Source of the DNA: Coptis chinensis
Taxonomy: Eukaryota > Streptophyta > Magnoliopsida > Ranunculales > Ranunculaceae
DNA: 64,000 bases
Direction of reading: 5' to 3'
Assembly: GCA_015680905.1 (NCBI GenBank)
Contig: CM027385.1
Location: 21,396,501 to 21,460,500 of the forward strand
The notes under the pieces are model-generated. The model ran no database searches. It was not told the origin of the DNA and worked only from the letters and a program-made list of their open reading frames with translations. Position numbers and translations under genes: made by a program. This document shows positions 15,223 through 64,000 of this stretch, in pieces (position 1 is the stretch's first letter; every line of letters begins with the position of its first letter).

Positions 15223-16324
15223 TAGTAGGAAAATGATGGACCAGGATGACGATGATGATGGCTACGAGGACGCAAATCGTGCACAACACTGTTTAGTTCA
15301 TCAATTTGTTGGCCGAGCTGAAGTTGAATGGCGCACTGATTGGCAGAAAGCGTAGTTTGATTCTCCATTAGGAGAGCGTGATTTTCCAAGGACTGAGAGT
15401 GATTTTCCAAGATTGCCTCTTGTTCCACATCGTGCATTGCTTGACGTTCTTGGAAATCCAGAAGGCTTTTGATGATGATTTCATGGCGTGCGTGTAGTTC
15501 CCGCATGCCTTGGTGAAGAAAATGAATGCCTTCCATAGGTATAGGATTAAAAATGTTCTGCATGGCATTTTCATCAAAGAAATGTTCAGAGTTTGAGCTT
15601 TGGTTGTCTTGTTCATCTGTCAGAGTATCTGGAGTCCAAAAACCAGCGGCGCAGTCTATGTGAATTAAAGTGAGGTCCGCTTTTTGAAGAGGTATTTCTA
15701 GATAAATAGCTGGATAACCCCAACGCATCATAATTTTCGTGACTAAAGTAGGCAGAGGTGCTAACCTTTTTTTAGGCCTGGTGATTGAGTCCCGGGATGT
15801 TGGATTATGCAAAAATCATCCCTTTAATTCTGCCTAATCCAAAGTAAGTGGAGTTGAGGTTTTGTCACTTCAGATGTTTGTGATGTACCTACGACATTGT
15901 GTCATAACTAGTGAAGCACAACTCGTTGATTCAGTTTCAAAGAGCATTGAAGAACAACGTGATGTCTGTTTCCAACTTCGCCACGAGAGACATTGGCCTG
16001 TAGTAGTTGTTTGACGGTATCAAAGGGTGACTCTGGAATATGGAACTCTGGGTTATTAATTGGAATTTGAAGTATGTCGGAGATGATTTCCCTAGTCAAT
16101 TCAAATCGTTGTCCATGGGTATGGAAACAGAATTTACCATGTTCAGTTCCGCTATATTCGTAGAACATCAAAACCAATTATCTAGAATAAGCAACTTCTG
16201 AATGATATAGAAGAGGCATCCATCCTTGACGTACAATTTCTAAATCAAAATAAGGAGAAAACAGGCCGTCATCAAAAAAATTCAGGTAATTTTTCTCGGG
16301 CACTATCTTTCTTGGTTGATCCAT
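15222..16324 (-). pseudogene. env2 of element A: env-position plant transposon protein, broken
   Basis: The start at 16324 (MDQPRKIVPEKNY) is followed by the pattern GLFSPYF-EI-GW-PLLY-Y, then LVLMFY, FELTREIISDILQIPI and a C-terminal part with FDENAMQNIFNP and a helical Gln/Glu-rich tail ending in a His/Arg-rich stretch. It matches env2 of element D (61937-63033) along its length. It resembles what I recall as the putative plant transposon protein family (Pfam PF20167, from memory) found downstream of gypsy pol. I see no signal peptide or membrane span, so it is not an obvious envelope protein. A TAA at 16178-16180 and frame breaks near 15830-15910 inactivate it. Confidence 0.8.
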
Positions 16325-16389: not shown

Positions 16390-16396
16390 ATTTATA
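16390..16396 (-). promoter_or_regulatory. TATA box of env2 in element A
   Basis: TATAAAT on the minus strand, about 66 bases before the env2 ATG at 16324. Element D has a TATA-like box about 70 bases before its env2 (61861-61869), so the placement is conserved. Confidence 0.55.
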
Positions 16397-17092: not shown

Positions 17093-17212
17093 CTAGATAT
17101 TTTGGATGATGTTATGCATGATTAGTAGTATCACAACGATAAATACTGTTATCAGGACGACTTTGAATGCTACATCACATTGCTCCTTTTCGAATTTCTT
17201 GATCGGATCCAT
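17093..17212 (-). CDS. 39-residue single-span membrane microprotein of element A
   Basis: ATG at 17212, TAG at 17095-17093. It starts MDPIKKFEKE, has a short charged segment to about residue 17, then a hydrophobic stretch of about 20 residues (VVLITVFIVVILLIM), and ends HNIIQNI. Element D has a 40-residue relative at 61483-61605 with the same MD-x-x-x-KFE start, the same charged-then-hydrophobic design and the same NI end. Both lie between env1 and env2, about 90 bases after a TATA box and an AACGGTCA array. The frame is intact although both neighbouring genes here are broken. I do not recognise the family. Predicted: a small tail-anchored or signal-anchor membrane peptide; function unknown. 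Confidence 0.7.
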   Translation of the reverse strand: MDPIKKFEKEQCDVAFKVVLITVFIVVILLIMHNIIQNI

Positions 17213-17297
17213 TATGTTGAAGAAGATGAGAATATGTGAAGATTAAGTTGTGGAGAGTGAGAGAATGGGATGAGTGAAGTTTGATGAGGAGTGTCGG

Positions 17298-17376
17298 AAT
17301 TTATAGGCGAAAATCTGACCGTTTGTGGATATTTGACCGTTTGGATATCTGATTGTTTGGATATCTGACCGTTGGA
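17298..17376 (-). promoter_or_regulatory. Promoter of the microprotein in A: AACGGTCA repeats plus TATA box
   Basis: On the minus strand, perfect AACGGTCA words lie at 17316-17323, 17334-17341 and 17366-17373, with a degenerate one at 17350-17357. The most upstream sits in TCCAACGGTCA (17366-17376), a perfect match to the mitosis-specific activator consensus YCYAACGGYYA bound by MYB3R factors. TATAAATT follows at 17305-17298, 86 bases before the ATG. The same arrangement stands before the microprotein of element D. The word also overlaps W-box-like TTGACC on the opposite strand, an alternative reading. Confidence 0.6.
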
Positions 17377-17629: not shown

Positions 17630-20318
17630 CTACTGTGAATCGTTAGGGTTAGCCGAAGATGAACCAGGGTTCCGATGACGACGGGCGCTGCGAACTCCTG
17701 AGTGAGATAACTGGTCATGTATGTTGCCTAAAGACTGAACCACTTGTTCCTGAAATTGATGTTGGCTAGCCCATTAACATGCGCTGGAAACGGCTCTGAC
17801 GATTATGCATCTCTTGATGAAAATCACCTATGGAAGTATGTATCTGTTGCTGAAAATTACCCATGGAAGTTTCCATGCGTTGCTGAAAATCAACCATGGA
17901 AGTTTCCATGGTCACCTGGTGAGTAAACATGTTGCGCATGCCAGTGTTCATTGTTCTCAAAGCTTCCATGGGATTAATGATTCTATGCATGGTATTCTCA
18001 TTAAAACAATTGGGGGGGGGGGTTTGGGAAGGAGGAAGAGGAGGCACATTATCATGCTCAACATTATCTCTTGCTATAGGTTCCCAGTGGTCCATGACAC
18101 AAGTCTCAAAAATCCCAAAATTTTTGAAGGACCTTGTTTGAATTAATGGAGTAGCAGACTGGAACCCTAAATTAATCATAATCTGTGTAACAAGAACAAC
18201 AAGAGGGGCTGACCTGTTGGATGCAGTAGTAAGGACATGTCCAAGGAAATGGACCATACAGAATGTTTCCTTCTTTTCCTGGAGGATCCATAACAAATGC
18301 AAGAACGTCTTTTTGACGTCGGACGTCTTCGATATACCAATCACATTGTAGGCCAGCCATTGAGTGACTACCAGTTGGTTCCGTCGGAGGGAGTGTTGGT
18401 ACACGCATCTCGAGCCATCGTTGTATTCTCCCTCGAGTAGCATGTCGAACATCAATTCCATAATATTAGGATAATCCGATATCAGCATGGTTAGATGATA
18501 AGAGTCCAAAACTGTAGTTTTAACCCTGTAACAGTCATACTTTTAGACCAATTATATGAGTAATAATTAAGAGTTAATACTGATTACGTGTTTTTATGCA
18601 TTTCAGGCTTCAAAGTCCATTATGTGCAGAAATGTGCCACTTTAGCGAGATAAAGGAGCAAAGGTTGGTTGCTAAGGAGTTCTGTGATTAAAGGCCAAGA
18701 TTCAAGAAGACAAAGCCTTTCTAAAGCCCGGTCAAAAGCTGAAAAGTCGACGCGGGCAGAAACAGCACACAAAGTCAGCAGAACTTCCGAAGGCCGTATC
18801 TTTGGACTCAGACCTTATGTCAAAACAACCGGCTCGGAAAGAGCTTTCCAATGGTCTAAGCCTTGACCCAATCAGAGGAGTAGAAGTGGACGAAAAGTCA
18901 GTTGAAGACAACTGTAGCTGAAGAGGCCTTTTTGGACTGAAAGAATTGGGTTTTGGGCCTGATTCTCTGGCCCAAAACATGGCTCCAAGCCCATGCACGA
19001 TTTTTGGATCTGAAGGTATAAAAACAAGAGCTTGACTCTTTGTTAATGGTAGATAGTTAGACCTAGATTAGTTAGCCTCCATTAATTAGTTTTAGAACTT
19101 AGTTTTAGAATTTCAATTAGTTAATTAATTAGTTTTTCATATCTTGTTTTAGATATAGTTTCATGTTTAATTAATTACTTTAGAACAAAATAGATTATTA
19201 ATTTAGTATTTGATTCATTATTTTATTATTCATTAGATTAATAAAATAGTGTTCTTGGTAATCTAGTTTCATGTTCCATTTACTTATTTAGTTAAATTCT
19301 TAGATTCAATTATTTGTCATTATTAGTTTAATTCAATTATTGCATGAGTAGTTTTGAATTGAGTTTAAACAAGCAAAGTTTCAATCTTTATATAATGTCT
19401 TGTTCGAATTCCATTGGGAATGATAGCGTGATGATTCTCGGCTAAGCCTCCATTAGAGGGGGTTGAGAAGCCTTAATGAAAGCTTGATTCCGATTATCGT
19501 AGAGTCGTCGTAATTTCCTTTCCACTCTAGAAATGATTAGTTCACCATGAGAATGGGTGTAATCGTTCACATGCTAGTTATGAATTAGTAGAAATGCCAT
19601 GTGTAATTAGGGGATTAGGAGTAACCAGTTGTTTCGCGGCGATTCAATTTGGATTACTTACGATCTCGTCGTTAGTGGATTAAGTTGAGCTAAGGTGGAA
19701 TCAATCCCCCTCTAACTCCTTATCATAGAATCGACGTAGTATTCCCAAAGTTGTTCAAATAGTCGACTAGTTGCATCTTGTGGGTAGTTGCATCGTAGTC
19801 TAGTTATCATTCGTAAATCTCTCATTAGACTTTAGTTAAGATTACTTATATAATGAGAGAACACAAAGATCTTGGAAGGACTAGGAGTGGAACGAATCAT
19901 CTACTCCACTATATCTCATAGGATTGAGAGTAGAAATCTTTGATAAATATAGGCACGTATAAGTTTTAGTTTACTTACGTTTTGAGTTTTATCGTTCATT
20001 TCATAGGTAAACTTTTATCTTTTTATGATTTATCATTAGACTATCGGAGTTGATCGGAATATTCGTTATAACTGATAACAACTCTAATGTGAGTTCACGT
20101 TCCATCCCATCCGTCGTAATCCAAAACTCATTTCCCCGAAAACCACTATTGTTGTAGAACTTCAACAATAAATCTTCGGAGTAGTGTTCCGGAATTAGGT
20201 GCAATAGATACTCCCACTCCCTACTTGCAATTTCCGCATAAACAAATGGGTGAAACATGTCGGCATCATAGAGATTTTTGAAATTTCGCTCGACTGTGAT
20301 TTGTCGATTTCCGGCCAT
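17630..20318 (-). pseudogene. env1 of element A, interrupted by a solo LTR
   Basis: The N-terminal part (20318 down to about 20041, start MAGNRQITVERNF) and the C-terminal part (about 18490 down to 17630) are halves of one gene split by the LTR at 18496-20035. The N part has the same DADMFHPF-EI-RE-EYLL-LLLKFY pattern as env2 and env3. The C part has a conserved LEGEYNDG-RRNQLVVTQWLAYNVIG block, a proline run, then a coiled-coil-like tail with an 11-residue METSM-x-x-FQQ repeat, and ends in an Arg-rich segment (SARRHRNPGSSSA) after a frameshift near 17763. The same tail occurs in env1 of element D. No signal peptide or membrane span. Dead because of the insertion and the frameshift. Confidence 0.8.
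18496..20035 (+). mobile_element. Solo Athila-type LTR inside env1 of A, 1540 bp
   Basis: Begins TGATAAGAGTCCAAAACTG and ends TTTATCA, flanked by the 5-bp duplication TTAGA (18491-18495 and 20036-20040). It aligns closely with the 5' LTR of element C (43811-45336), including the GCCCGGTCAAAGCTGAAAAG region and the GTAAAAC-rich end. There is no internal retrotransposon sequence, so it is a recombination product of a former complete element. A TATAAAAA box at 19017-19024 is its likely promoter. Confidence 0.93.
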
Positions 20319-21236
20319 AAAGAGATTGAATTGGATTTCTGAGGGTGTATATGGGGTGAACGAAGTGAGTAGAAGATGTTGTAGGAAAAGAGTTTGCGTT
20401 GGTGAGGTTTCTATCGCGTGCGTGAGTCAAATCTAGGGTAAGCGTACCGCGTGCGTGTTTAGATGGGAACAAGATCCGGATTTAAGGGGGAAGAAATGGA
20501 AGAGGCTGATACGTGGGATGTATCGTGTGAAGGCTTTACTGGTTGGGCACGTGACTTGGGTTGGTTTCAAATTTTTGGCCCAAGCCCATATGAAATCTAG
20601 AAATTCCCATTATGTCCCTAAATGTCTGAAACTTCCAATTTGAAACCTCGATTCGTTTCAACTCCAAATTAATGGAACGAATGAGGTGCCAAATTGATCG
20701 ACATTAAAATTGCCATCCAATGGAATAAGGCAAGTGCACATTCAAACCTTTTATTTATTTATTATTATTTTATTTATTTATTTTTTTGGGTGCGTGGGGG
20801 GGGGGGGGGGGTTGAGTCCTTTTTTTTTTTACAAATGTACAAGGGGAGATGAACGTGTCAACAACACCGGAAGTCCAGAAGAATCACCACAAACAGTAAA
20901 ATCAGGCAACTGTCATGTCGGCTCTGGAGCGAACCCAATCTAGCTAGACTATGACTTAACCTTTATCTTTTGGGGGCCTAGGGTTCAGGACGGTACCATC
21001 CCTGACCGTTGTGCAATGGTCTAGTAATAATATTACCCTTAGTACATATGGTATAGCCTCAAACTACCCTGAAATGCAATCAAATAGCAAACTGCTAGGG
21101 GTTTCACTAAGTATTGGCCTGGTGAAATCCATTGCCTGTCCAAATTAGAGAACATCCGTTATTGCACATCACGACTCTCTTTGTGCACAATGCTTAGTGC
21201 AAAAGGAAAAATAAAAGACACGAGTATATACATGTT
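20319..21236. other. Spacer between Cys/Arg-rich frame and env1 of element A
   Basis: Non-coding on the minus strand and alignable with 58970-59340 of element D (shared GATGGTACCGTCCTG and GAGCCGACATGACAGTTG). It contains a run of 16 G (20796-20811) followed by a T run, beside a TTTA-rich stretch. Confidence 0.5.
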
Positions 21237-30419: not shown

Positions 30420-31091
30420 AGTTTTTAGGCCCATTTTGCGATTGATTGTAGTGGCACAATTGAGTTTTAAAGTCTTATTTATCGTAATTCATAGTTTAAG
30501 TTTAGTCGTAGTTATATTAATTCATAGTTTACGTATTTAATTTTAGTTATTTTTGCAGATAGTTAAGCAAAGATTTTTTCTTACAAAGTTGATAGTCGTG
30601 ATTTTGTTGTGGACTTTGTGAAGTTGCTTGCTGTCGTCACCCGGCGTCGCAAGTAGCCCTCGAAGGCTTACGCCGGAGGTACGTCTCTTTCCTTTGTGGG
30701 CTTAGACTTTGTTTGTTTTCCGTGTTTTGCTTGTTTTCATTGTTTCTTGCATCTAGGAAGGTTAAATCACCTTGACCAGCCTTAGGCATCTTGCATTAGG
30801 ACAGGTTTAGCCCGCTCACTAGGAAAGCCCTTTTGACACGTGGATCGAGTGGACGGTGCTTTTTGCACAAGAACCGGAATCGTGTTATTTGGGTTTAGGA
30901 GCAAATATATTAAACATTATTGAAAATTCAATCTGGTTTGAAATAAAATTGTTTGATATTATTTGTGTGTGTGCATCGTTTGCATTAATTATAGTCTTAG
31001 GTATTAAGTTAGTTTTCTTTTTGTTAGGGTGTCGTCCTATAGAGTCTTAAAATAAAAATAATAATAATAATAATTAAAAAAATAAATAAAA

Positions 31092-32762: not shown

Positions 32763-32934
32763 AAGATTTGTGTAATCTTGTGAAACGTAAGATGCATGTG
32801 CAGAGAGAGCATTCCTTACAGAGCAAGTAAGCTCAATCATTCAATACAAAACTCCACCTAAGTTTAAAGATCCAGGTTGTCCCACCATTTCGTGTGTTAT
32901 AGGAAGCCATAAGATAGAGCAAGCTTTAGTTGAT

Positions 32935-34395: not shown

Positions 34396-36873
34396 GTGCA
34401 TTGTCCTATGTTAGCCTATAGTGCACTGCATTGGCATATCTTATTAGGTGATACATGGTATGTTTAAGTGTTGTTTTGCACAAGTTTGGGGGTGACAGAG
34501 TTAAATTGAACTTCACATGATCTTTTGCTTGAGATTGGAATATTTGATTATTATTAGGTCATAATCTGAGTGATATCTAATGAGTATGTTTGTACTTTAG
34601 TAGTTTAGGTTTTGTTTTTCGTTGTTTTTAGGTTTTGTTCTTCTTTGGTAAGAGTCGCTTCGCATTGTTCCCAAATATTTCATTCTAGCCCCTAATCTCC
34701 ATTTGGGGTTAACCAATGAGAAACATATTATCGTGATTTTAAGGTTATGACAGGTTGTCTATTTATGAAATGTCGAAAATACAAAGGAGACTCTGTCGAA
34801 ATTTTTTCAATTTTGGAGAGTTCATTTTGTGTTTAGTTGGTAGACAAAATGCTAATCTAAGAATTGGGTGTGCGAAGCATTAGCCCCGCTAGAGACGTTA
34901 ATCAGAGCTTTATGGGAGGCAACCCATGTTTTATTTTTGTTGAGTCTTTTGTGCACGTGTATCATGCATTCCACTCTAGCACCTTTTCTCTGCCTTTTTG
35001 GAGACGTGTAACTCTATGGGGTGAGACACGTGACACATTTTAGTCATTGTAGTAACTTGGTTCCTCTTTTATATTATCATTGTTATATCTTTTGTGAGGT
35101 ACTAATTTCTACAGGTGAATCAAAGATATTATTTTTCGTTTTTGGAAGCTCTTGGTAACCTCTTTCCTTATATACTTTTACTTGTCCATGTTGTTATCTT
35201 TTAAATTCCGTATCTATGTTAACATTGAGGACAATGTCTATAAAAAGTTTGGGGTGGGAACAAAATGTTTGTTTAGCGAAAAATAAATATGTCTAACATG
35301 GTATGATTAATGGTGATTTTCTATGACGAGAAATTAAAAAAAAAAAAAAAGATTTTTAAAGCCACTGATTTTCAAGGAATCTATGAAGTTAAGAGTCACT
35401 TTTGAAGCCATTGTTGCTTTTAGACTATTTTCTACCTCTAGAAATAGATTTTGTTGATGAAGTCTAAGCCAAAGTGGAATATGCACTATTAGCCACCTGA
35501 TACATGTCAAATTGAAGAGTAATTTAATCTCCTAGTGAACTAGAAGAGAAATGTAGAGACTTAACCCGTGAGACTTGAGCCTTTGAATTTCTTGGAGAGT
35601 TTTTACGTAAATTCTGAGTCCAAGTTGACTCAATCATTTTTTTGTGCTTAAATTCGTTGTATGGTCTCATTTTTTCTTATTTTGGTCGATCACGAAGTGA
35701 CATCAACTGGGGAGATAGCCATTAGGTCTTGTAGTCTATTCGAAGCGGAATATCATACTGATAAGTCAAGTAGTGAACCAATTAGCCTTTATTTATCCCA
35801 CCTAGTAGGATCATCATGTTAACCCCTTTTGAGCCTTATATATTAAGCCTTTTCTTCTCAAACCAACTATATTTAACCCAACTCCAGATAAGGAGTCTAA
35901 ACCCATATTATTGGCCTTACCCATATTTCTGAGAATTTCTAAAAGACTAAGGAGAAAGCTAGAAGAAAGAAGATTTGGAAGGAAAATTTACCAAAATCAA
36001 ATGAAGAAAATCATTCCTTTTGCTCAAAGTGATTCAATAGAAAAAAAAAAGAAATCATTGAGTAGAAGTAGTGAGAAAGTCAAGTAATGTGATCTACAAA
36101 GTGAAGAAATTTTCCATGAAGGTCAAGTACAAGATGGTCTTTAGTTGATTCTCAGAAATTTTGGATTCCTTTTTACCATTTTCTTGTCAACCTATCCTAA
36201 GCCCCGTCTTAATACCCAGACTTATCACAAAAGTATGATATGAAGTGTAGAATAGGTGAGAGGATGCTAAAGTGAAGGACCCGACACTTCACATGTGATT
36301 GATGTTCTTTCCATGAGACTAATTTGTTTTTGAAATTTCATAAGTCCGTCTTTCTGGCTAAGTATGTGGGATGTTCTATTATTTTACTCATTTCCCTGCA
36401 TACAGAGGTAAAATTGAAAACTTATCTAAGAGAGAGACTTTCTTGTGAGTGTATGAATGGTGAGGATTGAGGTTGATATGTTCTTTGGATAGTAAGTTAG
36501 GAATTCCGTTACTTGGATAAGAGATTGTATTAGTTTGGCTAAACACACACACGCTTTGTTTTGGAGTAGTAATCAATGATTTCTATCTTTGGAAGTAGTG
36601 ATGAGTCTTGGTAATGATGATGTAAACTGTGACAATTGCTGATTTTTGAACTTGTTTAGTAGTGGGCGAAAAAAAAATTTTATCTCTGAGAAAATTATAT
36701 CACCATTTGTTATATACTATGTTAATGTTTGTGGGTACCATTTCTGAAAACCCTCACGAGACTAAACTCGTCCACTAGGGGTAACCTAGAGGTTTAACGG
36801 CTTGTTACACATGCTAAGTGTAATCGTGATTCCTACGAAAGTGAGTTAGAATTTTTGTTTTTGTTATTAGTTT
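34396..36873 (+). other. Long non-coding 3' region of element B
   Basis: About 2.5 kb without a gene. It carries GGGAGGCAACCCA (near 34915), a word typical of Athila-type 3' regions. It also holds two copies of AAGTTTGGGG-like tracts far from the LTR (about 34483 and 35250), the second preceded by TTGAGGACAATG, like extra polypurine-tract motifs. No reverse transcriptase or integrase remnant is visible. Confidence 0.6.
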
Positions 36874-36916
36874 AGTTTTGCTCGAGGACTAGCAAAATGT
36901 AAGTTTGGGGTATTTT
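36874..36916 (+). promoter_or_regulatory. Polypurine tract region of element B
   Basis: TTTTGCTCGAGGACTAGCAAAA followed by AAGTTTGGGGTATTT, directly before the 3' LTR. This is the same motif pair as in element A at 13495-13532, so both belong to one lineage. Confidence 0.8.
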
Positions 36917-38721
36917 TGATAAGCATAAATGTTATATATTTACCAATTTTATATTAGTTAGTTCGTTTAATTTATTCGTTTGATGTAGTTAGTGTATTTT
37001 TGGTGGTTTTACAGGAATTGGAGTTATTGATTAAAACTGCTGAAACTATCGAGATTCCAGGATATTATTGTGCGAACTTGTGGTTAGATTGAGGGGCGCT
37101 AGTTGTTCAGTTCAATGGAGGTGCCCTGTGATATTGGGAATATACCGTTTGCGTGTCTGCTAATGAGAATTGAGGCGTTATTGATTTGGACTTGGTACCT
37201 TAGCACCTGATCATCAGTAGAGAAACAAGGCCAGAGACTATGGATATGAATATTGGTAAATGCACGTGAAGAATACAAACTTGCAAGCTATGGGCCAACT
37301 TTTCTTAAACCTTATTAAACCTCGTATCACAAGGTAACCTTACCTATATTTTAAACCTCGTATCACAAGGTTTATTTTTACCCTTGAATTTCTTTCTCCT
37401 AGACCGGCCATGTGGGATGGAATCAATAAAGGTGTTATAAAAACCGCACCCATCAAGCTTTGAATTTCGGTATGCCTTTTTACTCAAAATCCCATACCCA
37501 CTAAGGGCCACACCATTCCCCATCCGGCTTAATATACCGTAGCAGTCCTTAGCTTCTTCTCCGGTTTCAATTCGCACGAACAGAAAAACCCATCCCTCAA
37601 TTCCCGCGATCAAATCTCCCAATCCCGAATTTCATGCAAATCGACCTAAACAACTAAATAACCCACACACTACATTACCATAAACTCGACTCATTATCGC
37701 GAATAGGAAGGAAAACCCAAAACAGCATCTCCTTTAAATCGGACTTGGATCGAAACCGAAACTCTTTCGATCGACTTCGAATTCTATTCGAAATCAAACA
37801 CTGCTAAAACCGTAACCTCTATATATACAAGTAAAAAACCAAAGAAAACTCTCTCCACAACACAGCAGAATTAAGAACGGACAGAAAAGTGGAGGAGGAT
37901 TGGAGACGCACGGAAACCGAGAACGAGACGAAGGGAGGCCAAGGAGACTTCACTGTCGACATGAGTTTTCCTAACCTTTTCTTTACTTTCAGTTCCATTA
38001 TTATGACTTGCTAAATTATTTAGCTAGGGCTAAGATGAAGCCCTAACCTTTGATGTAATTATTTTGAGATTGGGTTTTATGGTTATAATAATAATTAATC
38101 ATTCAATCTTCTTTCGTTACATTCTCGATCAATAGTTGTTATATTCTTGCACCTTGTATGTCAAGCATCCTAGGTAGTGTGAACTGATTAACTATTAATC
38201 ATAGCCTGATATCTATTGTCAATATCAAATTTAGATATTAGTTGTGCCGTTAAAAGACAATTAATCTTTTAAGTTCGATCTCTAGTGCTGAATTTCGGAA
38301 GATGCTTTTATGTAATTGTTTTGTCACGATAACATCTTCGGGTAAACACCGAATTCTCATTCGAGTGTTTCTCGTATTAAACTGAAACATTGAACCCCAG
38401 TCCTAAAATATTTATTGAAAAGTCTAGAGTGGATTCTGAAGTCCTAGTTCCTCTCCAATCATCTGAACCAAATTCTTTAGTTAATTGCTTTCATAGAAAT
38501 TAGTTAAATTAAATAGTTTTAGATAATAGTGAATTCCAAACTTTCTCTAAACCACCATTGTTCGCATTAGGATAAATAATCAGTTAGTATTCAATTGTCC
38601 TGAGTAGCAATCCCTGTGGGATCGACCCGTTCGCCGCAACTATATTCAACGATAGCTGTGCGCTTGCGGTATAATTAGGATTAGATTAGTCTATTAATTT
38701 AGACTGACTAATTTTCTATCA
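36917..38721 (+). repeat. 3' LTR of element B
   Basis: Starts TGATAAGCATAAATG and ends TTTTCTATCA, then AAAGA. It differs from the 5' LTR mainly by clusters of 1-4-base indels, many beside CG. TATATATA lies at 37820-37827. Confidence 0.95.
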
Positions 38722-38726
38722 AAAGA

Positions 38727-42376: not shown

Positions 42377-42607
42377 CTGTATTCCTTGAATGTGGTGGGA
42401 ATGACCTAAGGTATTCATTGAATGTGCCATGAATAACTTGTTAGTATTATGTTGGGTATTCCTTGAATGTGGCGGGAATGACCCAAGGTATTCATTGAAT
42501 GTTCCATGAATGACCTATTAGTGTTATGATGGGTATTCCTTGAATGTGGCGGGAATGACCCAAGGTATTCATTGAATGTGCCATGAATGACCTGATATTT
42601 TGTTATG
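42377..42607 (+). repeat. 77-bp tandem repeat, three copies
   Basis: GTATTCCTTGAATGTGG-type units have ATTCC at 42381, 42458 and 42535. Each unit contains two related halves (ATTCCTTGAATG...GGGAATGACC and ATTCATTGAATG...CATGAATGACC), so it arose from a shorter duplicated word. Confidence 0.9.
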
Positions 42608-43810: not shown

Positions 43811-45336
43811 TAATAAGAGCCCAAAACTGTAGTTTTAACCCCTTAACAATATTGCTTTTTGACCAATTATGTGATTAATAAGTAAGAGTTAGTACTGTTA
43901 TCGTGTTCTTATGTATTTCAGGCATTAGAGTCGAATATGTGCAGAAATGCACCCCTTTTGCGAGATAATGGAGCAAAGGTTGGTTGCTAAGAAGTTCTAT
44001 GATTAAAAGCCAGGATTCAAGGAGAAAAAACCTTTTTAAAGCCCGGTCAAAGCTGAAAAGTTAAAGTTAACGCAGACAGAAATAGCGCACAGAAGTCAAC
44101 AGAACTTCCGAAGGCCGCATCGTTTGACTCAGACCTTGGAATTGGGCCTACCTTATGTCAAAACGACCGGCTCAGAACGAGCTTTCTAATAGTCTAAGCC
44201 TTGACCCAATTAGAGGAGAAAAAGTGGACAAAAATACTATTGAAGTCATTTCTAACTGAAAACCCCTTTGTGGACTGAAGTAATGAGGTTTTGGGCTCGA
44301 TTTTCCGGCCCAAAACATGGCTCCTCAGCCCATGCACAAAATTGTGAATCTGATCTCCTCCATATGAGGAGACAAATGCTTAGCTCTTAAGCAACTTAGT
44401 TTTTACTTAGTCAATAATGCAATAGTTAGTTTTTATCTAGTTACTTTTCATAAAATTAGTTTTTAGAACAAGAATTTAATTTGTAGAATCAATAACTTAG
44501 TTTTTATCTAGTGAATTATCAATAAATTAGTTAGAACAGTAAATTTAGTTTTTAGAATCCATTACTTAGTTCATTTCATTTAGTTTGTCTTAAATTGATA
44601 ATTAGTTATTCATAATCGTAGTTTTAAATTCAGTTTTAATTCATTTTGAATCATTATTACTCATGTTCAATTAGATTAATAAAGTTTATTGCTTATTCAA
44701 TAATGACTTGTTCTATTTGTTCTTGTGTTAGAAATGATAGTGTAATGATTCAAGGCTAAAACCTCTATTATAGGGGTTTGAGAAAGCCTTGATGAAACTT
44801 GATTTCGATTAGCGTAGAAATGGTCGTAGTAATCTATTCTATTATAGAAAGTAATTAGTTCTCCATGAGAATGGGTTTGATTGCTTCACATGCTGATTGT
44901 TAATTGGTAGAGATTACCATGAATGATTAGGGATTAGATATACCCAATTGTTATGCGAAAACATTTCAATTTGGATTACGACAATTCTTCGTTAGTTAAT
45001 TAAGGCGAATCAAGGTGGAATCAAATTCCCCTAATTCCTCCCCATATTGTCAAGTTAGTATTTTCATAGTTTGATTTATATCATCTTGATTGTTGATTCA
45101 CCATCATAGTTACGTTCAATTCCATTACTCTCACGACTTTGTTAGCTTACACGAACTAGGACACGTTACATTCTGAACGAGCTAAGAGTGGAACGAATTC
45201 TCTACTCTAAACGTATTGCATTGATAAAGAGAGTAGATAACTTTGATATATATAGGCAAGAAAATAGTTCTAGTTTTACTTACATTTGAGTTTTGTCGCT
45301 TATTCATAGGTAAAACTATCGTTTTACCTTTTATCA
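43811..45336 (+). repeat. 5' LTR of element C
   Basis: Starts TAATAAGAGCCCAAAACTG (TG changed to TA) and ends CCTTTTATCA. It is the closest relative in the window of the solo LTR at 18496-20035. It is followed by AA and the primer site. Confidence 0.9.
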
Positions 45337-46116: not shown

Positions 46117-47743
46117 ATGGCTGAACTCTCTGACTTTTACAAAGTCTTGAACGATAGCCCAAAATCTTGCATTGTTCTTGCAGACCCAGTGGGGGATTTT
46201 CGAATCCCCCCGAATATATTTAATTTGTTACCAGTTTTTCATGGGCTAAACCATGAAAAACCTTATCAGCATATACGTAGGATTGAACAAGTTCTTACCA
46301 CATTCCATCATCCTACGGTAGGTGCAAAACAAATTAAACTGAGGGTGTTTTCTTTCACCCTAGTCGACAAGGCGACGTCTTGGTTAATTGCCCAAGCGTC
46401 TAATTCTGTGGACTCATGAGCCAAACTTGTTCAATTGTTTATGGAACATTTTTACCCACCACTGAAGACAGATGAAATGTTTTCCAAGATTCATTTTTTC
46501 CGACAGAATCCTCATGAATCCTTTTCAGAGGCTTGAAATCGTTTCACTGACCTTCTTATAATGTCCACATCATAACCTTGTGAAAGACATGTTAGTTCGT
46601 GCCTTTTTCAAGGGACTTTTACACCACCATAAAGAGGTCCTTGATATAATTAATAGAGGTAGTTTCCTCAATAAAGGAGCCTCAGAGGCTTATAGGTTTT
46701 TAGAAGATCAAACAAAGCATAATAACAACTGGGGGGGTAGTGACGATATCCCCCGCTCTGCTAGTTCTTCTTTAACAGTTAAGGCTGCTGATATGTTTGA
46801 GATTAAACCCGATCTTAAGCTTAAAACTTTAATCGAATCTCTCACTGAAAAGGCAGAAGCTATTTCTATTCAACAAAAGTCTATCCCAGTCATGAATGTC
46901 AACTCTAATCCATGTAATTTCTGTTTGAGTCCTGAGCATCCCGACTCCTATTGTCCTCTCGCCTATGAACAACAAACATGACAACTAGATAATGTTTGCT
47001 CCATTAATAGCTATCCTATTCACAACGCCCCTTGGAGACAAAATCCCAACTTCAGTTGGAGAAATAATCAACAAGTTACACCTCCAGGGTATAATAATCA
47101 AAATGTTAGGCTAGCAAACAATTACAACCAAGCTCCACCATGACAAGGACAAGGACAAGGACAAGGACAAAGGAATAATAATAATTATAATGCTAATAGA
47201 GGTATCGTTCCGGTTAATCATAACTACCACAACCCACCTGTTAATAATCAACGTGACATAGTTCTTGTCACACAACCTGTAACAACCACTCCTCCACTAC
47301 CGGATCATTTCGACGCCTTTATGCAACAAACCCAACAAAAGATTTTACAGTCCATCCAACTTTCCTTACAGCAGTTAGCCCAAGAGAAAGTACAACCCAA
47401 AGGTGTGTTTCCAGGTCAAGCGATACCTAATCCTAAAATAACAAATACAGCCTTTGAAGTAAATGGTAATACTAGTAATGAAAATGGAAATGTAGGTGAG
47501 CTAAAGGCTATCACCACTCTCCGTTCTGGCAAAGTGGTTGATAACGCCATAACTATGACTATAGTTACCCCACCAATAGTCCCTACACCGGATATTGTAC
47601 TAGATACCAAAGTAATAACTGAAGATCCTACCCCAGTAGAGGTACCAGTTAAACCACAACCTAAGAAAAAAAAGCCAAGGTTAGACATCCTGTTGATCCA
47701 TACGCTAAATATAGAGAGAAACCATTGTTTCCCCAGAGATTAG
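46117..47743 (+). pseudogene. gag of element C
   Basis: Starts near MAELSDFYKVLND, with DFRIPPNIFNLLPVFHGLNH and LRVFSFTLVDKATSWLIA, and the knuckle CNFCLSPEHPDSYC. The linker carries a (GGACAA)n hexamer run near 47143-47170, then AITTLRSGKVVDN. TGA replaces Trp at 46417-46419 and near 46536, there is one frame change near 46560, a TGA at 46979-46981 and a shift near 47690. Confidence 0.85.
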
Positions 47744-48366
47744 CCATGTTAACCAAGGATATGAATTTTGATGAGATTAGGGAGGTTTTCAAAAATCTAA
47801 CGATAAACCTACCCTTCCTAGAAGCGATTAAAAAGTTACCTCATCATGCTAAGTTTCTTAAAAAGTTGTGCACTACTAGGCGTAAGACAAATATTCCTAA
47901 AGACACATTTTTAACTTAACATTTTCCAACTTTAACCGAACATAATGGAATCGTTAAGTATAAGGACCCTAGTCGTCCTACTGTACAATGCACCTTAGGA
48001 GATTCCCACACGACGACCGTGCTATTAGACTTGGGAGCAAGTGTTAACTTACCCCCTTATTATTTATATAAACAAATAGGTCTACAAGAGATGCAACCTA
48101 CTAAAATGACGTTGCAATTACCGGATCGGTCTATTAAGTGTCCTAAGGGTGTGGTTCAAAATGTGCTTGTTAAGGTTCAGGATTTCTACTATCCTGCTGA
48201 TTTTGTTATCCTCGATACAGAAGTCGCTAACGACTCTGTTCTGATCATCTTAGGGCGTCATTTCTTGGCAACTGCCAACGCACTTATAAATTGTCGCGAT
48301 GGTTCGATGTCCATGTCTGTTGGCCATCTTTCTGTTGAGGTAAATGTTTTTAAAATGATGAAATAG
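47725..48366 (+). pseudogene. Protease region of element C
   Basis: Carries FKNLTINLPFLEAIK, the site LLDLGASVNLPPYYL, LPDRSIKCPKGVV and IILGRHFLATANALINC. A TAA at about 47917-47919 and a TAG at 48364-48366 break it. It is in one frame with the reverse transcriptase downstream. Confidence 0.87.
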
Positions 48367-48657
48367 TTATCAGATTCGTCTGTAGATGGGGAGGTTAGCA
48401 TGATCGAGAGCTTAGCTGAAGACTATTTTAACAACACGTTTCCAGAAAACTAGATGCATAAATTCTTTTCCTTTGGAAGTTCAGTTTTTGCCGATGACTT
48501 CTACTTAGAGGAAGTCAACACCATTTTCGATTATACTCCTATAGTAGACCCTTCTGTTGCTCCATCTACTGAGTTTGAAGACCTGCTACCTAAATAAGTC
48601 TTCACTACTCAAGATAAGGAGTCACCATAAGCCTTTATCGACATTCCCACCACCCTG

Positions 48658-50070
48658 GTGCTTAAACCTCTTCCTTCTGAGTTGAAGTATATTCAACTTG
48701 ATCCTGATTGTAGTCATCCGGTAATTATATCTTCTCTGTTGTCTGTGGATGAAGAAGCATGGTTGATTAGGATAATTAGGGAACATCGTTCAGTAATTGG
48801 TTGGTCCCTAGACGACATTAAGGGGATTGACCCTAATGTTTGCACTCATCGTATCCATTTGGAGGATAATGCAAAGACTTCTCGCGGACCTCAGCGTCGC
48901 TTGAACCATACCATGAAAGAGGTGGTTAGGGAAGAAGTCTTACATTTACTCGATGCGGGTATCATATGCCCAATCTCCGATAGCGAATGGGTAAGTCCCA
49001 TTCATGTAGTTCAAAAGAAATTGGGGGTTACCATGGTACGTAATGTTAAGGGTGGATATGTTTCCACACGAGTCCCGTTAAAATGGAGGACCTGTATTGA
49101 TTATAGACGTTTAAATACCATGACACGAAAAAGTCATTTTCCTTTACCATTTATAGATCAGATGCTTGAACGTCTAGCTGGTCATGCTTATTATTGTTTG
49201 TTAGATGGCTACTCTAGCTATTTTCAAATTATTATCGATATTGATGACCAAGAAAAGACTGCCTTCGCATGTCCTTTTGGAACGTATGCCTATAAATGAA
49301 TGCCTTTTGGCTTTTGTAATGCTCCTGGTACCTTCCAGCGGTGTATGCTTTATATATTTAGTGACATGGTAGAGCACTTCATGAAAGTTTTCATGGATGA
49401 TTTTTCTATCTATGGAGACTCTTTCACTGACTGCCTGTCTAAGGTTTTGACATGGTGTGAAGAGAAGAGTTTGGTTTTAAATTGGGAAAAATGTCATTTC
49501 TTGGTGAAAAAGGGAATAGTGCTTGGTCACATTGTATCTAGTGATGACATCAAAGTAGATAAGGCCAAACTAGATAAGATAGTATCTCTACCTATACCAC
49601 GGACTGTCCATGATATTAGAGCCTTTCTAAGCAATGCAGGGTTTTATAGGCGCTTTATCAAAGATTTTTCAAAAATAGCTAGGCCTTTAACTAATTTGCT
49701 CTTAAAGGATGCCATTTTTTATTTCAATTATAATTGTAAATAGGCTTTTGAAACTTTAAAAGCCGTTTTAACATCTGCACCCATTATACAGCCTCCCAAT
49801 TGGTCTAAACCTTTCGAATTCATGTGCGATGCTAGTTATTATGCCGTTGGTGCTGTGCTAGGTCAGAAACTAGATAATAAGTCTACTGTCATTTATTATG
49901 CTAGTAAAACTTTAAACGATGCTCAAAGGAATTATACAACTACGGAAAAAGAATTTTTAGCTGTCCTATAAGCTTTAGATAAGTTTCGTCCTTATTTGGT
50001 TGGTACTAAGACTTTAGTTTACACGAACCATGCAGCCCTTAGGTACCTTCTCGCAAAGAAGGATGCTAAG
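48658..50070 (+). pseudogene. Reverse transcriptase and partial RNase H of element C
   Basis: SELKYIQLDPDCSHP, IGWSLDDIKGIDP, PFIDQMLERLAGH and the catalytic FMDDFSIYG are present, then RNase H motifs FMCDASYYAVGAVL and TEKEFLAVL. Stops at 49297-49299 (TGA for Arg), 49741-49743 (TAG for Gln) and about 49969 are isolated, without frameshifts. The sequence stops after [11 protein letters not shown], where the LTR of element D has inserted. In D and A the same protein continues with QRL. Confidence 0.92.
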
Positions 50071-59794: not shown

Positions 59795-60964
59795 ATGGCC
59801 GGAAACAGGCGGATTTGTGTTGAAATTTTTTTTGGGAATTTGTTTGAAAACGGGATGTTTGCACCATTCTTTGATCACGAAATTCACTCTAGAGGATGGG
59901 AGAGTTTGTTATATGCCAATGGAGGGCTTTATTCCAAGGATTTGGTGATGAAATTCTACGACAATGGGAGCTTTAATGGCGACCATTTTTGGGTCACCAT
60001 CGAGGGTGTGTATACGGTCACACCGGTGTTGCTCTCCCGATCACGGGCATTCCACCGGGTCGACCACATACCGACTTCGGCAAGCAGTAGCCGGTACCCA
60101 CGGACTTACGACCTAATGCTCAACACGCTTAATCGAGGGAGAGTACAACATCGACGGAAATGCGCCAGATCGGTATTTCGGTGCGACGGAACCAGCTAGC
60201 GATGACTCAATGGTCGGGACTGACGCGTTATTGGCACCTCGAAGCCTTCCGACATCAACAACACCTTCCTCCACCTTCTCCGATCCTCCAGAGTGAAAGG
60301 GTAACTTCTGCATCGTTACCTTTCTTTTTGATATTATCACACATGCCACTCTTAGGTCAGCCCCCCTTGCCGTTCTAGTAACGCAAGTCATGATTAATCT
60401 GGGATTTCTGCCTGCCACCCCACTACTCCCTATACCACAATATGAGAATATGCTGGTCTTTAAGAAATGCATACAAGACCCTTGGGAACCCACAGCACCT
60501 AGGGCTACCGAGCACGCTAGCGTAGGATCCTCTCACCCACCATACTTTGATGAGACTGCCATGAGTAAAATCACCCAACCCATAGAGGCCATACGTGCTG
60601 TGAACAGTGGTCTGAGAGACATGTACACTCGCCAGGTATCGATGAGACGTACCTTGGGCGAGTTAAGGACAGATATGACCACTCGCCACGAGTAGATGAT
60701 GACATACGCATGGGCGAATTCCAAAGAGAAATGAGAGCCTCCATGACTGCATTTTCAGACAATATGCTTACTCGCCGAACCGGTTTCAATGAATGTTCAT
60801 GGCGAGCCAAAGATCGATTCGTGCTTTCGGTGATGGATACTTTTGGTGATATCCAAGAACAGTTAGCCTCCACGGGAGCTCGTACTGCACGACATCGCAG
60901 GACTCCTGGTTCTTCTTCTGCAGCCCCCGAGGATTCTGCTACAGCACCAGAGGATCATCAGTAG
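59795..60964 (+). pseudogene. env1 of element D
   Basis: Starts MAGNRRICVEIFFGNLF at 59795, like env1 of A, with GMFAPFFDHEIHSRGWESLL and LVMKFYDN. The middle is broken by frame changes between about 60000 and 60390. Then MINLGFLPATPLL, FDETAMSKITQPIEAIRAVN and a helical tail are readable, with one more break near 60695. The end is an Arg-rich ARHRRTPGSSSA segment and an acidic tail. There is no signal peptide or membrane span. Confidence 0.82.
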
Positions 60965-61233: not shown

Positions 61234-61386
61234 AACGGTCATGAACCACATATAAAAAACGGTCATGAACCACATCTAAAAAACGGTCAGAAAATGGTCA
61301 TGAACCACATCTAAAAAACGGTCAAAAAACGGTCATGACCGCATCTAGAAAACGGTTAAAAAACGGCAAATTTATTTCTATAAATA
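61234..61386 (+). promoter_or_regulatory. Promoter of the microprotein in D: six AACGGYYA sites plus TATA box
   Basis: AACGGTCA at 61234, 61258, 61282, 61317 and 61328, AACGGTTA at 61351, plus a degenerate AATGGTCA at 61293. They sit in a tandem repeat of about 24 bp whose units also contain ATGAACCACATCT. TATAAATA follows at 61379-61386 and the microprotein ATG at 61483. AACGGYYA is the core of the mitosis-specific activator element recognised by MYB3R factors; the sense of action is inferred. The array is absent from the other genes in the window except the equivalent site in element A. Confidence 0.65.
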
Positions 61387-61482
61387 AGTTCAACTCTTCC
61401 TCCATATTCACTCATTTCATATTCTTCCCTCTACACTTCTTATTCTAAAAACCATTTTTGGATCACTCCAAGCTCAAGATTC

Positions 61483-61605
61483 ATGGATGCACTAGAAAAG
61501 TTTGAGCAAAGAAAAATGATTGAATATGCTACTCAAGTCTTCATGCTCGGTTGTTTTATTATAGTCATGTTGTTCATGTGGCATATAGTTCTATCTAACA
61601 TTTAG
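61483..61605 (+). CDS. 40-residue single-span membrane microprotein of element D
   Basis: ATG at 61483, TAG at 61603-61605. It starts MDALEKFEQRKMIEYATQ, then a hydrophobic stretch of about 20 residues (VFMLGCFIIVMLFMWHIVL), and ends SNI. It parallels the 39-residue product of element A (17093-17212) in start, length, design and end while differing at most internal residues. It is the first ATG after the TATA box. The neighbouring env1 is broken, yet this frame is intact. Family and function are unknown; a membrane anchor or small effector acting with the env-position proteins is a possibility. Confidence 0.7.
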   Translation: MDALEKFEQRKMIEYATQVFMLGCFIIVMLFMWHIVLSNI

Positions 61606-61936
61606 GTTTGTATTTAAGTCATCGTATCATTATGTTGTGTTTCCATACCGTTTATACGTTCTTACATCTTATTGTAATAATATATCTACAGTTTCCTTGT
61701 CTTTCTACTTTACGTTTTCTAAAAAAAAAAACTCCTTGTCACATGCCCCAATCTTCTCATCCACACTACACCCACTTTTGCGCATATCTTAGAAGATACA
61801 CGTGGCCTAACTACCCTATGACACCTCGAAATGTATCTTTTACACTTTCGGATGGGTGCCTATTTATAACAAGGATAGACACCTCAAAAATTTAACTTCC
61901 CTTTTTCCAAAATAATTTTTCACCACTCCATCTTTA
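61606..61936 (+). other. Spacer and env2 promoter of element D
   Basis: Holds the 3' end of the microprotein transcript and a TATA-like TATTTATAA at 61861-61869, about 70 bases before the env2 ATG, placed as in element A. Confidence 0.5.
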
Positions 61937-63033
61937 ATGGCCCTCACTAGAAGTTTTGTGCCTGAGCAAAATTTTATGGAAAATTTCCAAAATGGCCTTT
62001 TTCATCCTTTTCTTGACACTGAAATATTACGTCGAGGATGGTACCCTCTTTTACACCATAAGCAAACATTTTATTCCAGAGAATTGGTCTTGTTATTTTA
62101 TAAAAGCGGTTATTTCCAAAACGGACAATTCTTTGTCCGTGCTAACGGATGCGAGCATGAATTAACTATGGAAATCATCTCTGAGGTACTTCAAATTCCT
62201 ATTACAAACCAAGAAGTACACCTTCAGGATTCACCTTTCGATAATATCTGGCATCTGATGTTTGCAACTATCCTTCATGGCGAATACAACCGAAAAAACC
62301 GTATTGTTTATCAGCGATCTTTACAAAAGAACCAATTATATGTGATCCAATGGGTAGCTCATAATGTCCTAGGCACATCTAAGACTTCCGAAATAACCAA
62401 ACCACTCCTCCATTTACTCTGGGTGTTGCAGACTAACTGCAATGATTTTTGCATTATTAAATTTCTCCGGAATCGCGATCGCGACGCGTGCGGAAAAAGG
62501 CAGCCCCTTTACCAACCATTGTGACACTTATCATGATACATTGGGGTTTTTCTAGTACTTCTCCTCACACACCTCTTCGAACAGCTAACATTCTTACCAT
62601 TCACTCAGTATGTAGGAACGGATTCTGGAACCCCGACGTTGCAAAGAACCATGTCGGTGCAGGAACCAACGAAGATTGTTCCACCGACAACATCTTTCAT
62701 GAAAATGCATTATGCAACGTATTTAATCCCATGGAAGGGCTTCGCTTAATTCAACAAGGACTGATGATATTATTCAAACGTCAGAACATTATTATCACCA
62801 GCCTTCTTGAATTTCAGGACCTGCGGACAATAAACGAAGAGGAACAAGCACAATTCTTGCACAGCCACAACCAATTCTTGGCAAATCACACTCTCATAAT
62901 GGAGAACCACGCCGAGATTTACCAGACAGAAAGCAAAATGTTGCAACAGGCTGTTGCACGGATTGACGGCATAGAAAATCTTATAAACGGATCCCTCCCA
63001 CAAAAGGATCCTCGCCGTTACTTGGGCCAATGA
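61937..63033 (+). pseudogene. env2 of element D, one frameshift
   Basis: Starts MALTRSFVPEQNFMENF at 61937, with GLFHPFLDTEILRRGWYPLL, ELVLLFYKSG, HELTMEIISEVLQIPI, LHGEYNRKNRIVYQRSLQ and NQLYVIQWVAHNVLGTSK. A single frame change at about 62480-62500 separates it from a C-terminal part with PLPTIVTLIMIHWGF, HENALCNVFNPMEGLRL and a helical Gln/Glu-rich tail to 63033. It is the best-preserved env-position gene here and aligns with env2 of element A. No signal peptide or membrane span. One base error or indel could be the only lesion. Confidence 0.82.
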
Positions 63034-63183
63034 AACCATTTAAATTTTGCAATTTTATATTATTTATCATTTTCTTTTTATTTTTTTAATTTTTGTATGG
63101 TAATTTGTTTTTACTTAATTATTCTCATCATACTCTAATATTTGTTTATCCTTGTCTAAATAGGTCACATTTTTTTTCACACA

Positions 63184-64000
63184 ATGGAAGCTCCAAAGAT
63201 GATTCCAGAACAATCTTTCCATTCATTGCTGAATTCTCCGGCATATGGACATCTTTTCAGAGACTACATCACTCAAGTTGGTTGGAACTCTCTCATTCTA
63301 CACCCGGAGCAGACATACTCCCCAGGTTTGGCAGTTTATTTTTATGATAACATGGAAGATCTACCAGCTGTCCAGGGTTTCCCTTTGAATGGGTTTACAC
63401 TACGTATTGGTAACAACCGACACGCTTTTTATGAGCCAACAGTGGCTATGGCTCTAGACCTTCCTCCTCTTCAGCCAGATCTCCCCATTCAATACATGAT
63501 AGGGAATGAGCTTAATGACTATTCTGGGGAAGATTTTGCTGCCCGGTATGGCGATGGCCTTGCCCACGTCAAAGAACGCGTGCGAAGGCGGCCGATGGCC
63601 GAATTCACTATTCCACTAGCCAAGATGACCATGAATGTTGAACCGCCATGTTATTTATTCTTCAACATCATGGGAGATTGGCATTTTTCCATGGCATCAA
63701 AGTCGATGTAAGACATTCCATGCAATCGCCCAAAGAACATACCACCTTCGACATTACGTAACTAATAATTGAGAATCTTAAGAAGGCTCGGTCTTTTCGG
63801 CAACACTATATCACCCCCCGCCACAACATGCGGGATAGTGAGGACGCACTTCCCGAAGTTTGCAGCCACCTTTCGGATTTGGGTAAAGGTCGACTCTATG
63901 TGTCCAACAAACAAGATAATTCGTTCTTTTCGCGATTTCGACATGGACACGCCCCTGCAAGGTATCTTAAGAAAGTTCGTTCTTTCCCTAACGATGATAA
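63184..64000 (+). pseudogene. env3 of element D, third env-position paralogue, runs off the window
   Basis: Starts MEAPKMIPEQSFHSLLNS at 63184, with the family pattern HLFRDYITQVGWNSLIL, TYSPGLAVYFYDN and a segment equivalent to the EIIS-LQIPI part, but more diverged from env1 and env2 than those are from each other. The frame ends at 63711; the next frame continues the coding style with one TAA at 63759-63761 and then stays open to the window edge. Element A has no counterpart. Confidence 0.7.

What the first reader, a model, noticed from the sequence alone, without database searches (positions are those of the whole stretch)
61483..61605. Conserved 40-residue membrane microprotein between env1 and env2 (D copy at 61483, A copy at 17093-17212)
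Two diverged elements on opposite strands each carry an intact tiny gene in the same place. Both start MD-x-x-x-KFE, have a short charged segment, one hydrophobic span of about 20 residues and end in NI, with 40 and 39 residues. Sequence has diverged but design, length and position are kept, although the larger genes around them are broken. No other protein of these elements has a membrane span. I know of no description of such a gene in Athila elements.
Basis: partly seen in the sequence, partly recalled or inferred. Interest (0 to 1): 0.88.

Follow-up and report, generated by a model that had tools for sequence, protein, structure and literature searches.

The report
Tiny membrane gene in Athila retrotransposons
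Two families of a plant jumping gene in one genome each carry, beside their larger genes, a 39-40-residue single-span membrane protein with what looks like its own promoter, fitted with a motif that plants use to switch genes on at cell division.

Summary
Confirmed, and wider than the window. Both frames exist, are homologous (tblastn E 1.5e-5; segment-keeping shuffles 0 of 20,000) and lie between env1 and env2. The host genome gives at least 150 scored matches for each family. A and D have lost third-position similarity (10 of 39 codons) but keep second positions (29 of 39): the protein was long under purifying selection.

A TATA box lies 93 (A) or 104 (D) nt before the ATG, preceded by sense-strand AACGGTCA repeats whose units differ between families. 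Among copies picked by non-coding DNA, AACGG occurs in 30 of 30 D and 38 of 40 A copies. AACGG is the core of the MSA element bound by MYB3R factors in G2/M genes. I read this as an independent, probably division-timed gene for a tail-anchored-like membrane microprotein.

Against: pN/pS within young copies is 0.92 (D) and 0.58 (A), at or barely below non-coding controls; intactness alone means little (neutral survival 0.58); no expression evidence; one species. Membrane site and role are inference.

The parts
61483..61605 (+). D microprotein gene, 40 aa, first ATG after the TATA box
61379..61385 (+). TATAAAT, 104 nt before the D ATG: core promoter (inferred)
   Evidence: a TATA box at -95 to -106 in 27 of 28 protein-picked D copies, window copy included
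61407..61415 (+). TTCACTCAT, 28 nt after the start of TATA: likely transcription start region (inferred)
61234..61366 (+). Array of 7 AACGG, 5 of them AACGGTCA, all sense: MSA/MYB3R-like sites
61861..61868 (+). TATTTATA, 76 nt before the env2 ATG: separate env2 promoter (inferred)
   Evidence: TATA-like motif in 36 of 36 loci where env2 was placed, one placement wrong, no background rate computed
59795..60199 (+). D env1, N-terminal piece
60569..60964 (+). D env1, C-terminal piece in another frame
61937..62524 (+). D env2, N-terminal piece; weak PF20167 match below its cut-off
62461..63033 (+). D env2, C-terminal piece in another frame
17093..17212 (-). A microprotein gene, 39 aa
17299..17305 (-). 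TATAAAT, 93 nt before the A ATG
   Evidence: TATAAA in place in 34 of 40 DNA-picked A copies, window copy included
17270..17278 (-). TTCACTCAT, 27 nt after the start of TATA
17316..17373 (-). Three AACGGTCA, all sense to the gene, in a 16-nt tandem repeat unlike that of D
17766..18542 (-). A env1, C-terminal piece
16391..16396 (-). TATAAA, 72 nt before the A env2 ATG
16178..16324 (-). A env2, N-terminal piece (ATG at 16324)

Best explanation
These Athila-type elements carry an independent accessory gene between env1 and env2. AACGGTCA repeats just upstream of a TATA box recruit MYB factors, most likely MYB3R, so that in dividing cells (G2/M) a short sense mRNA with a leader of about 60-75 nt is made apart from the LTR transcript. 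It is translated from its first ATG into a 39-40-residue protein with a short charged N-terminus and one membrane helix ending a few residues from the C-terminus. That is the layout of a tail-anchored protein with its N-terminus in the cytosol, and it could sit in ER or nuclear-envelope membrane to tether the element's own proteins or particles in dividing cells. Shown here: the frames, their homology, their constraint between families, and the TATA and AACGG architecture in many copies. Inferred: transcription, MYB3R binding, G2/M timing, tail-anchored topology, membrane site and role. My estimates: a gene selected for its protein 0.93; own promoter 0.88; MYB-type sites functional 0.75; MYB3R and G2/M 0.6; the tethering role 0.2.
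For: Homology beyond composition. Codon signature between A and D: identical at positions 1/2/3 in 18/29/10 of 39 codons; second-position identity reached by 0 of 20,000 codon shuffles within segments; dN 0.52, like env2's C-terminal piece (0.52), with dS saturated. 150 scored matches per family (the cap), from 1613 and 2173 candidates. Promoter: AACGGTCA 9 times in 64 kb (shuffle mean 1.37), 8 of the 9 upstream of the two genes, all sense; 0 of 200 first-order Markov simulations of 64 kb had even two octamers within 150 nt. It is the only 8-mer present three or more times in the 260 nt upstream of A and one of 17 such upstream of D, while the repeat units differ. In 38 protein-picked loci AACGG averages 3.16 per 260 nt upstream on the sense strand (36 of 38 loci), against 0.00-0.14 in three sense control windows. 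In DNA-picked copies: D 30 of 30, A 38 of 40. The site 16-19 nt before TATAAA is AACGG in 21 of 30 D and 18 of 40 A, and a CpG-decay form in 2 and 11 more. TATA-to-TTCACTCAT spacing 28 and 27 nt. One predicted helix, residues 2-39, mean pLDDT 89, from a two-row alignment. MSA core AACGG in G2/M genes: PMC10905365, PMC9730800, PMC8964727 and PMC12227204 (passages).
Against: Within families selection is hardly visible. D: pN/pS 0.92 (3 silent, 12 replacement variants, p 1, in the 22 in-frame of 29 located copies). A: 0.58 over pairs, codon bootstrap 0.38-0.98, against 0.68-1.41 for six pseudo-frames in the flanks; for variants shared by three or more copies 0.45, inside the control range of 0.42-2.34 (33 in-frame of 40 copies). 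The lower A value of 0.33 from protein-picked copies is largely a picking bias: neutral simulations gave means of 0.38 (range 0.29-0.51) and 0.46 (0.43-0.51). Only 21 of 40 DNA-picked A copies and 20 of 29 located D copies are intact. AACGG clusters of three, as in A, are not rare by themselves: 41 of 200 simulations had one. AACGG is also a general MYB core (recalled). env1 was placed upstream in only 20 of 38 loci. No RNA, ribosome or protein evidence. One species only; an Athila-related element of another, unidentified plant (L001; L002 is nearly identical) gave no microprotein match better than E 0.18 and has no AACGGTCA.
Confidence: 0.62

Rival explanations
1. The promoter is real and MYB-driven, but the factors are R2R3-MYBs (stress, pollen or other programmes), so the gene is not tied to cell division.
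For: AACGG is shared by several MYB groups (recalled); no expression data here.
Against: AACGG repeated close to the start site is the layout reported for MSA elements (orientation is said to vary between genes; passages). This is a fit, not a proof.
Confidence: 0.22
2. The protein is real but is made from the LTR-driven or a spliced RNA; TATA and AACGG repeats upstream are incidental or act as an enhancer only.
For: [quoted passage not shown]
Against: Position, strand and repetition of TATA and AACGG are kept in two families whose spacer DNA no longer gives a blastn match at E 1e-6.
Confidence: 0.1
3. The frame is a leader (upstream ORF) that tunes translation of env2 on a shared transcript.
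For: It lies 5' of env2 in 35 of 35 loci with a credible env2 placement, 454-1052 nt before the extrapolated env2 start.
Against: A TATA-like motif stands between the two genes near env2 in these loci. Amino-acid sequence and membrane span are conserved over saturated silent divergence, which leader action alone does not need.
Confidence: 0.05
4. A chance frame in DNA kept by recent copying; no selected protein.
For: pN/pS near 1 among young D copies and close to the controls in A; a short frame survives easily.
Against: A-D codon signature and shuffle tests.
Confidence: 0.03

Closest known systems
Accessory gene23 of maize Grande (Ty3/gypsy)
   Same: Accessory gene between pol and 3' LTR said to be transcribed from its own promoter (PMC7264820, passages)
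   Different: Antisense, nuclear protein (PMC7264820 and PMC11963269, passages); here sense, 39-40 aa, membrane span, AACGG array
Athila 14 ORF(-) of sunflower
   Same: Small ORF (70 aa) with one predicted membrane helix in an Athila element that also has a PF20167-type ORF (PMC11728184, passages)
Env-like ORFs of the Athila/Calypso lineage (PF03078, PF20167)
   Same: Same 3' region; the env1, env2 and env3 pieces of D are paralogues of one another
   Different: The microprotein matches no Pfam family at E <= 0.1
MSA/MYB3R-controlled G2/M genes such as CYCB1, KNOLLE, SCL28
   Same: Repeated AACGG near the transcription start (passages)
   Different: Host genes; expression timing of the element's gene is unknown
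Internal promoters of spumaviruses (recalled)
   Same: A second promoter inside a retro-element that drives accessory genes
   Different: No relation tested; different host and proteins

Membership tests
Athila lineage (Ty3/gypsy) | RT-RH-INT related to known Athila elements | tested here: inconclusive
   A and D RNase H region 78% identical; 63% to a gag-pol of an unnamed plant contaminant. No named Athila reference was available.
Athila lineage (Ty3/gypsy) | Env-like ORFs of the PF03078/PF20167 type after pol | tested here: inconclusive
   D env2 matches PF20167 at E 1e-6, 29.2 bits, below the 45-bit cut-off; the other 7 env pieces given to the call matched nothing
Athila lineage (Ty3/gypsy) | PBS complementary to tRNA-Asp | tested here: not met
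   0 matches in the window to a recalled 17-base pattern with up to 2 mismatches; a shorter partial match after D's 5' LTR was seen by eye only
MSA/MYB3R-regulated promoter | AACGG core repeated close to the start site | tested here: met
   the start site itself is inferred
MSA/MYB3R-regulated promoter | MYB3R binding and G2/M expression | not testable with these tools
   no ChIP or RNA data on hand
Accessory gene with its own promoter (Grande gene23 type) | Promoter inside the element, next to the gene | tested here: inconclusive
   sequence architecture present; activity not tested
Accessory gene with its own promoter (Grande gene23 type) | Homology to gene23 | not tested
   sequence not on hand
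Tail-anchored membrane protein | Single membrane helix at the C-terminus with a short tail | tested here: met
   by hydropathy and predicted helix; no topology or signal-peptide predictor was run
Retroviral Env | Signal peptide, surface and fusion domains | tested here: not met
   39-40 residues, one span only; no Pfam hit at E <= 0.1

The most novel reading that the evidence does not exclude
Athila elements run a second, cell-cycle-timed programme: a MYB3R-switched internal promoter makes a tail-anchored membrane microprotein in G2/M, when the nuclear envelope opens and the cell plate forms, so that the element's particles or integration complexes reach chromatin, or pass through new plasmodesmata, at the right moment.
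Probability: 0.2. Interest if true: 0.92.

Novelty: new variant of a known kind. Interest (0 to 1): 0.72.

Why it matters
The roles of extra genes in plant LTR retrotransposons are unsettled, and env-like proteins of Athila are debated (PMC7264820, PMC11728184, passages). A tiny, testable membrane protein with what looks like its own promoter, and a motif that names a class of host regulators, makes the question 'when and where does Athila act in the cell cycle?' directly testable. It also warns that ORF-length cut-offs hide genes in transposons, and that copies should be picked by non-coding DNA before dN/dS is trusted.

Tried and rejected
Protein database searches with D, with the A+D alignment and with D env2 found nothing; Pfam (E <= 0.1) and PDB sequence (E <= 10) searches with the microprotein found nothing. 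Four IMG/VR scans found no relative. The one scan of prokaryote genome contigs found two contigs with an Athila-related gag-pol, evidently plant contamination, with no microprotein match better than E 0.18.

A hypervariable patch at codons 9-12 in protein-picked D copies looked like diversifying selection. I rejected that: diversity in these loci rises modestly with CG/CHG content (r 0.30-0.40 over 90 bins, three reference copies; the most diverse bins, though, are the tandem array and A-runs), and of 29 located DNA-picked copies 18 have exactly the same CAG run while about three or four have lengths that break the frame (my reading). The artefact or hypermutability reading is inference; a paper search on nanopore errors at methylated sites found none.

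A pN/pS of 0.33 in protein-picked A copies was set aside after the neutral simulation. In D, 8 silent and 6 replacement variants among 28 protein-picked copies (p 5e-4) were set aside for the same reason. Rows dropped before counts: in D 1 of 30 loci not located and 7 frame-broken (with them left in, ratio 0.81, p 0.74); in A 7 frame-broken of 40.

Splicing of the frame to env2: not tested by a predictor; both copies end with a stop at the same place. The sigma-70/terminator scan is bacterial and was not used. One script failed; its comparison of L001 with the env pieces, its TATA background rate and its TATA-to-TTCACTCA spacing count were not repeated. In one search the A env1 piece was read in a wrong frame and is not counted.

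Full report
1. What is there. The two frames are exactly as described. D (61483-61605, +) encodes 40 residues; A (17093-17212, -) encodes 39. D against the whole window finds A at E 1.5e-5 and nothing else better than E 2.2. The similarity is not only one of composition: the alignment score of 70 is not reached in 20,000 shuffles that keep the charged, membrane and tail segments apart (maximum 57). In hydropathy they rank first (A) and third (D) among 248 small frames of the window; 16 other pieces of the two elements stay at 1.64 or below. AlphaFold2, given only the two rows, predicts one helix, residues 2-39, mean pLDDT 89.

2. The elements (boundaries are my reading of the repeats). D lies on the + strand. 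Its 5' LTR starts at about 50071, next to an older pol fragment at 46.2-50.07 kb, and D runs off the window. A lies on the - strand with LTRs at about 40693-39058 and 13494-11533 (8.0% divergent), and holds a nested element between direct repeats 28618-30420 and 36917-38722 (95.5% identical). env1, env2 and a third frame of D (63184-63711), here called env3, are paralogues: env1-env2 E 4e-15, env2-env3 E 7e-6, env1-env3 E 6e-5. D env2 matches PF20167 weakly, below its cut-off. In the window the microgene sits between env1 and env2 in both elements.

3. Selection between families. Between A and D the identical bases at codon positions 1, 2 and 3 number 18, 29 and 10 of 39; third positions are at chance (shuffle mean 10.8) and second positions far above (mean 18.9; 0 of 20,000 shuffles of codons within segments). 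dN is 0.52, as in env2's C-terminal piece (0.52) and faster than RNase H (0.10). So the protein was constrained while silent sites saturated. By contrast, intactness alone is weak: under A's LTR divergence a neutral frame of this size stays intact with probability 0.58.

4. Copies in the host genome. G000 has 935.6 Mb in 116 contigs. The D protein gave 150 scored matches of 1613 candidates (3 with a stop, my count); the A protein gave 150 of 2173 (67-100% identity; 21 with a stop, my count). Since protein-picked copies bias pN/pS downward (neutral simulations gave means of 0.38 and 0.46; observed 0.33), I picked copies by the non-coding spacer after the gene. D: 40 matches scored of 1209 candidates, 30 loci read, 29 genes located, 22 in frame, 20 intact; 3 silent and 12 replacement variants, ratio 0.92, p 1. 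A: 40 matches scored of 1685 including the window copy, a recognisable gene in 40 of 40 by eye, 33 in frame, 21 intact; pairwise ratio 0.58 (bootstrap 0.38-0.98; 2% of bootstraps at 1 or above) against 0.68-1.41 in six pseudo-frames of the flanks; variants shared by three or more copies 0.45 (p 0.011) against 0.42-2.34 in the same controls; singletons 0.65 against 0.66-0.94. Thus among recent copies drift after insertion dominates and the A signal is marginal; the clear signal of selection is between families. The DNA-picked and protein-picked sets overlap in part.

5. In both copies TATAAAT stands 104 (D) or 93 (A) nt before the ATG, TTCACTCAT follows 28 or 27 nt after the start of TATA, no other ATG lies between TATA and the gene, and AACGGTCA is repeated just upstream on the sense strand: 5 times in D, 3 in A. 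The octamer occurs 9 times in 64 kb against 1.37 expected, and 8 of the 9 are in these two places; the ninth is at 21003-21010. In 200 Markov simulations of 64 kb none had two octamers within 150 nt; clusters of three or more AACGG, as in A, appeared in 41 of the 200, the seven of D in none. Tandem units differ (24-, 11- and 35-nt periods in D, 16 nt in A), so the octamer is kept while its surroundings are not. It is the only 8-mer found three times or more in the 260 nt upstream of A, and one of 17 in D.

6. The promoter in many copies. Protein-picked D (window copy included): AACGG in 28 of 28, TATA in 27 of 28. Protein-picked A (window copy included): AACGG in 46 of 50 and CCGTT in 0 of 50 within 330 nt; a TATA box within 125 nt in 46 of 50. 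Across 38 protein-picked loci with long flanks the mean number per 260 nt is 3.16 sense (36 of 38 loci) and 0.08 antisense upstream of the gene; control windows give 0.00 (after the gene), 0.14 (before env2) and 0.07 (env1 region) on the sense strand and 0.06-0.26 on the antisense strand. DNA-picked: D 30 of 30, mean 4.57; A 38 of 40, mean 1.8 in about 180 nt, with CCGTT in 0 of 40; in D one CCGTT, at -30/-31 in the copies, is present in 20 of 30. AACGG is followed by TCA in 110 of 137 D and 48 of 72 A cases. The site 16-19 nt before TATAAA is AACGG in 21 of 30 D and 18 of 40 A copies, and a CpG-decay form in 2 and 11 more. env2 has a TATA-like motif 57-94 nt before its extrapolated start in 36 of 36 loci where it was placed; one placement (L038) is wrong, several starts are not ATG, the motif list was permissive, the copies are related, and no background rate was computed, so this is weaker evidence. 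In the same 38 loci env1 was placed upstream in 20, not found in 15 and matched only downstream in 3.

7. Reading. AACGG is the core of the mitosis-specific activator element bound by MYB3R factors, repeated near the start site of G2/M genes (passages in PMC10905365, PMC9730800, PMC8964727, PMC12227204). The longer consensus that I recall (ending AACGGYYA) fits AACGGTCA, but a search for its full string found no paper. I therefore read the unit as an independent gene switched on in dividing cells. The membrane span close to the C-terminus gives the layout of a tail-anchored protein. What it does there is unknown; tethering the element's proteins or particles to ER or nuclear-envelope membrane in dividing cells is my best guess (0.2).

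8. What is known. An accessory gene with its own promoter is reported for maize Grande, antisense and nuclear (PMC7264820 and PMC11963269, passages). A 70-aa one-span ORF on the minus strand is reported in a sunflower Athila element (PMC11728184, passages), and a 19-codon predicted span after pol in Tpb1-1 (PMC1142308, passages). In Retand elements no sense ORF of the size class studied after pol had a predicted span (PMC11963269, passages). Searches for Athila with env-like and transmembrane (7 papers), with internal promoter (7) and with own promoter (8), for plant retrotransposon internal promoters (9), for retrotransposons with MYB3R/MSA terms (0 and 0), and for Athila or small-membrane-protein terms (375 papers, 10 seen, none of those holding 'Athila') showed no listing that, from title or start of abstract, describes this gene. 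The library holds only openly licensed papers, and the Athila4 paper (Wright and Voytas 2002) is not held. I therefore call it a new variant of a known kind.

9. Limits. One species; no expression data; the assembly appears to carry garbled patches, partly at CG/CHG-rich places, so some broken frames, in large genes too, may not be real. The other Athila-related element that could be read (L001, unnamed plant; L002 is 99.7% identical) gave no microprotein match better than E 0.18 and has no AACGGTCA, so the gene is probably not universal in the lineage.

I went back over the counts. Added: env1 placement in 20 of 38, shared-variant and singleton controls, the 41 of 200 simulations, the missing env2 TATA background, the misframed piece, and rows dropped.

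Noticed in passing
window 59795-60199, 61937-62524, 63184-63711: env1, env2 and a third frame (env3) of element D are paralogues of one another, so the 3' module looks like a triplicated gene.
   Followed up: partly
L003-L030, codons 9-12 of the microgene and other spots in env1 and env2: Short patches differ wildly between otherwise near-identical copies; diversity rises modestly with CG/CHG content (r 0.30-0.40). Perhaps base-calling or assembly errors at methylated sites, or hypermutability.
   Followed up: partly
L001 (NZ_QPKJ02000021.1) and L002 (NZ_JABGCL010000066.1): Two bacterial genome records contain the same plant-type Athila-related gag-pol contig (99.7% identical over 9.0 kb): probably contamination.
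   Followed up: partly
window 28618-38722 and 46189-50069: An element with 95.5% identical ends is nested in A, and D starts right after an older pol fragment at 46.2-50.07 kb.
   Followed up: no
window 62981-63183: The stretch before env3 is T-rich and ends in TAG shortly before the ATG, like a plant 3' splice site; not tested.
   Followed up: no
window 42379-42597: Tandem repeat of about 77 nt, roughly three units.
   Followed up: no
window 18498-20035 and 43813-45336: Related stretches, one between the two pieces of A's env1 and one beyond the LTR at 39-40.7 kb, apparently copies of one inserted sequence.
   Followed up: no
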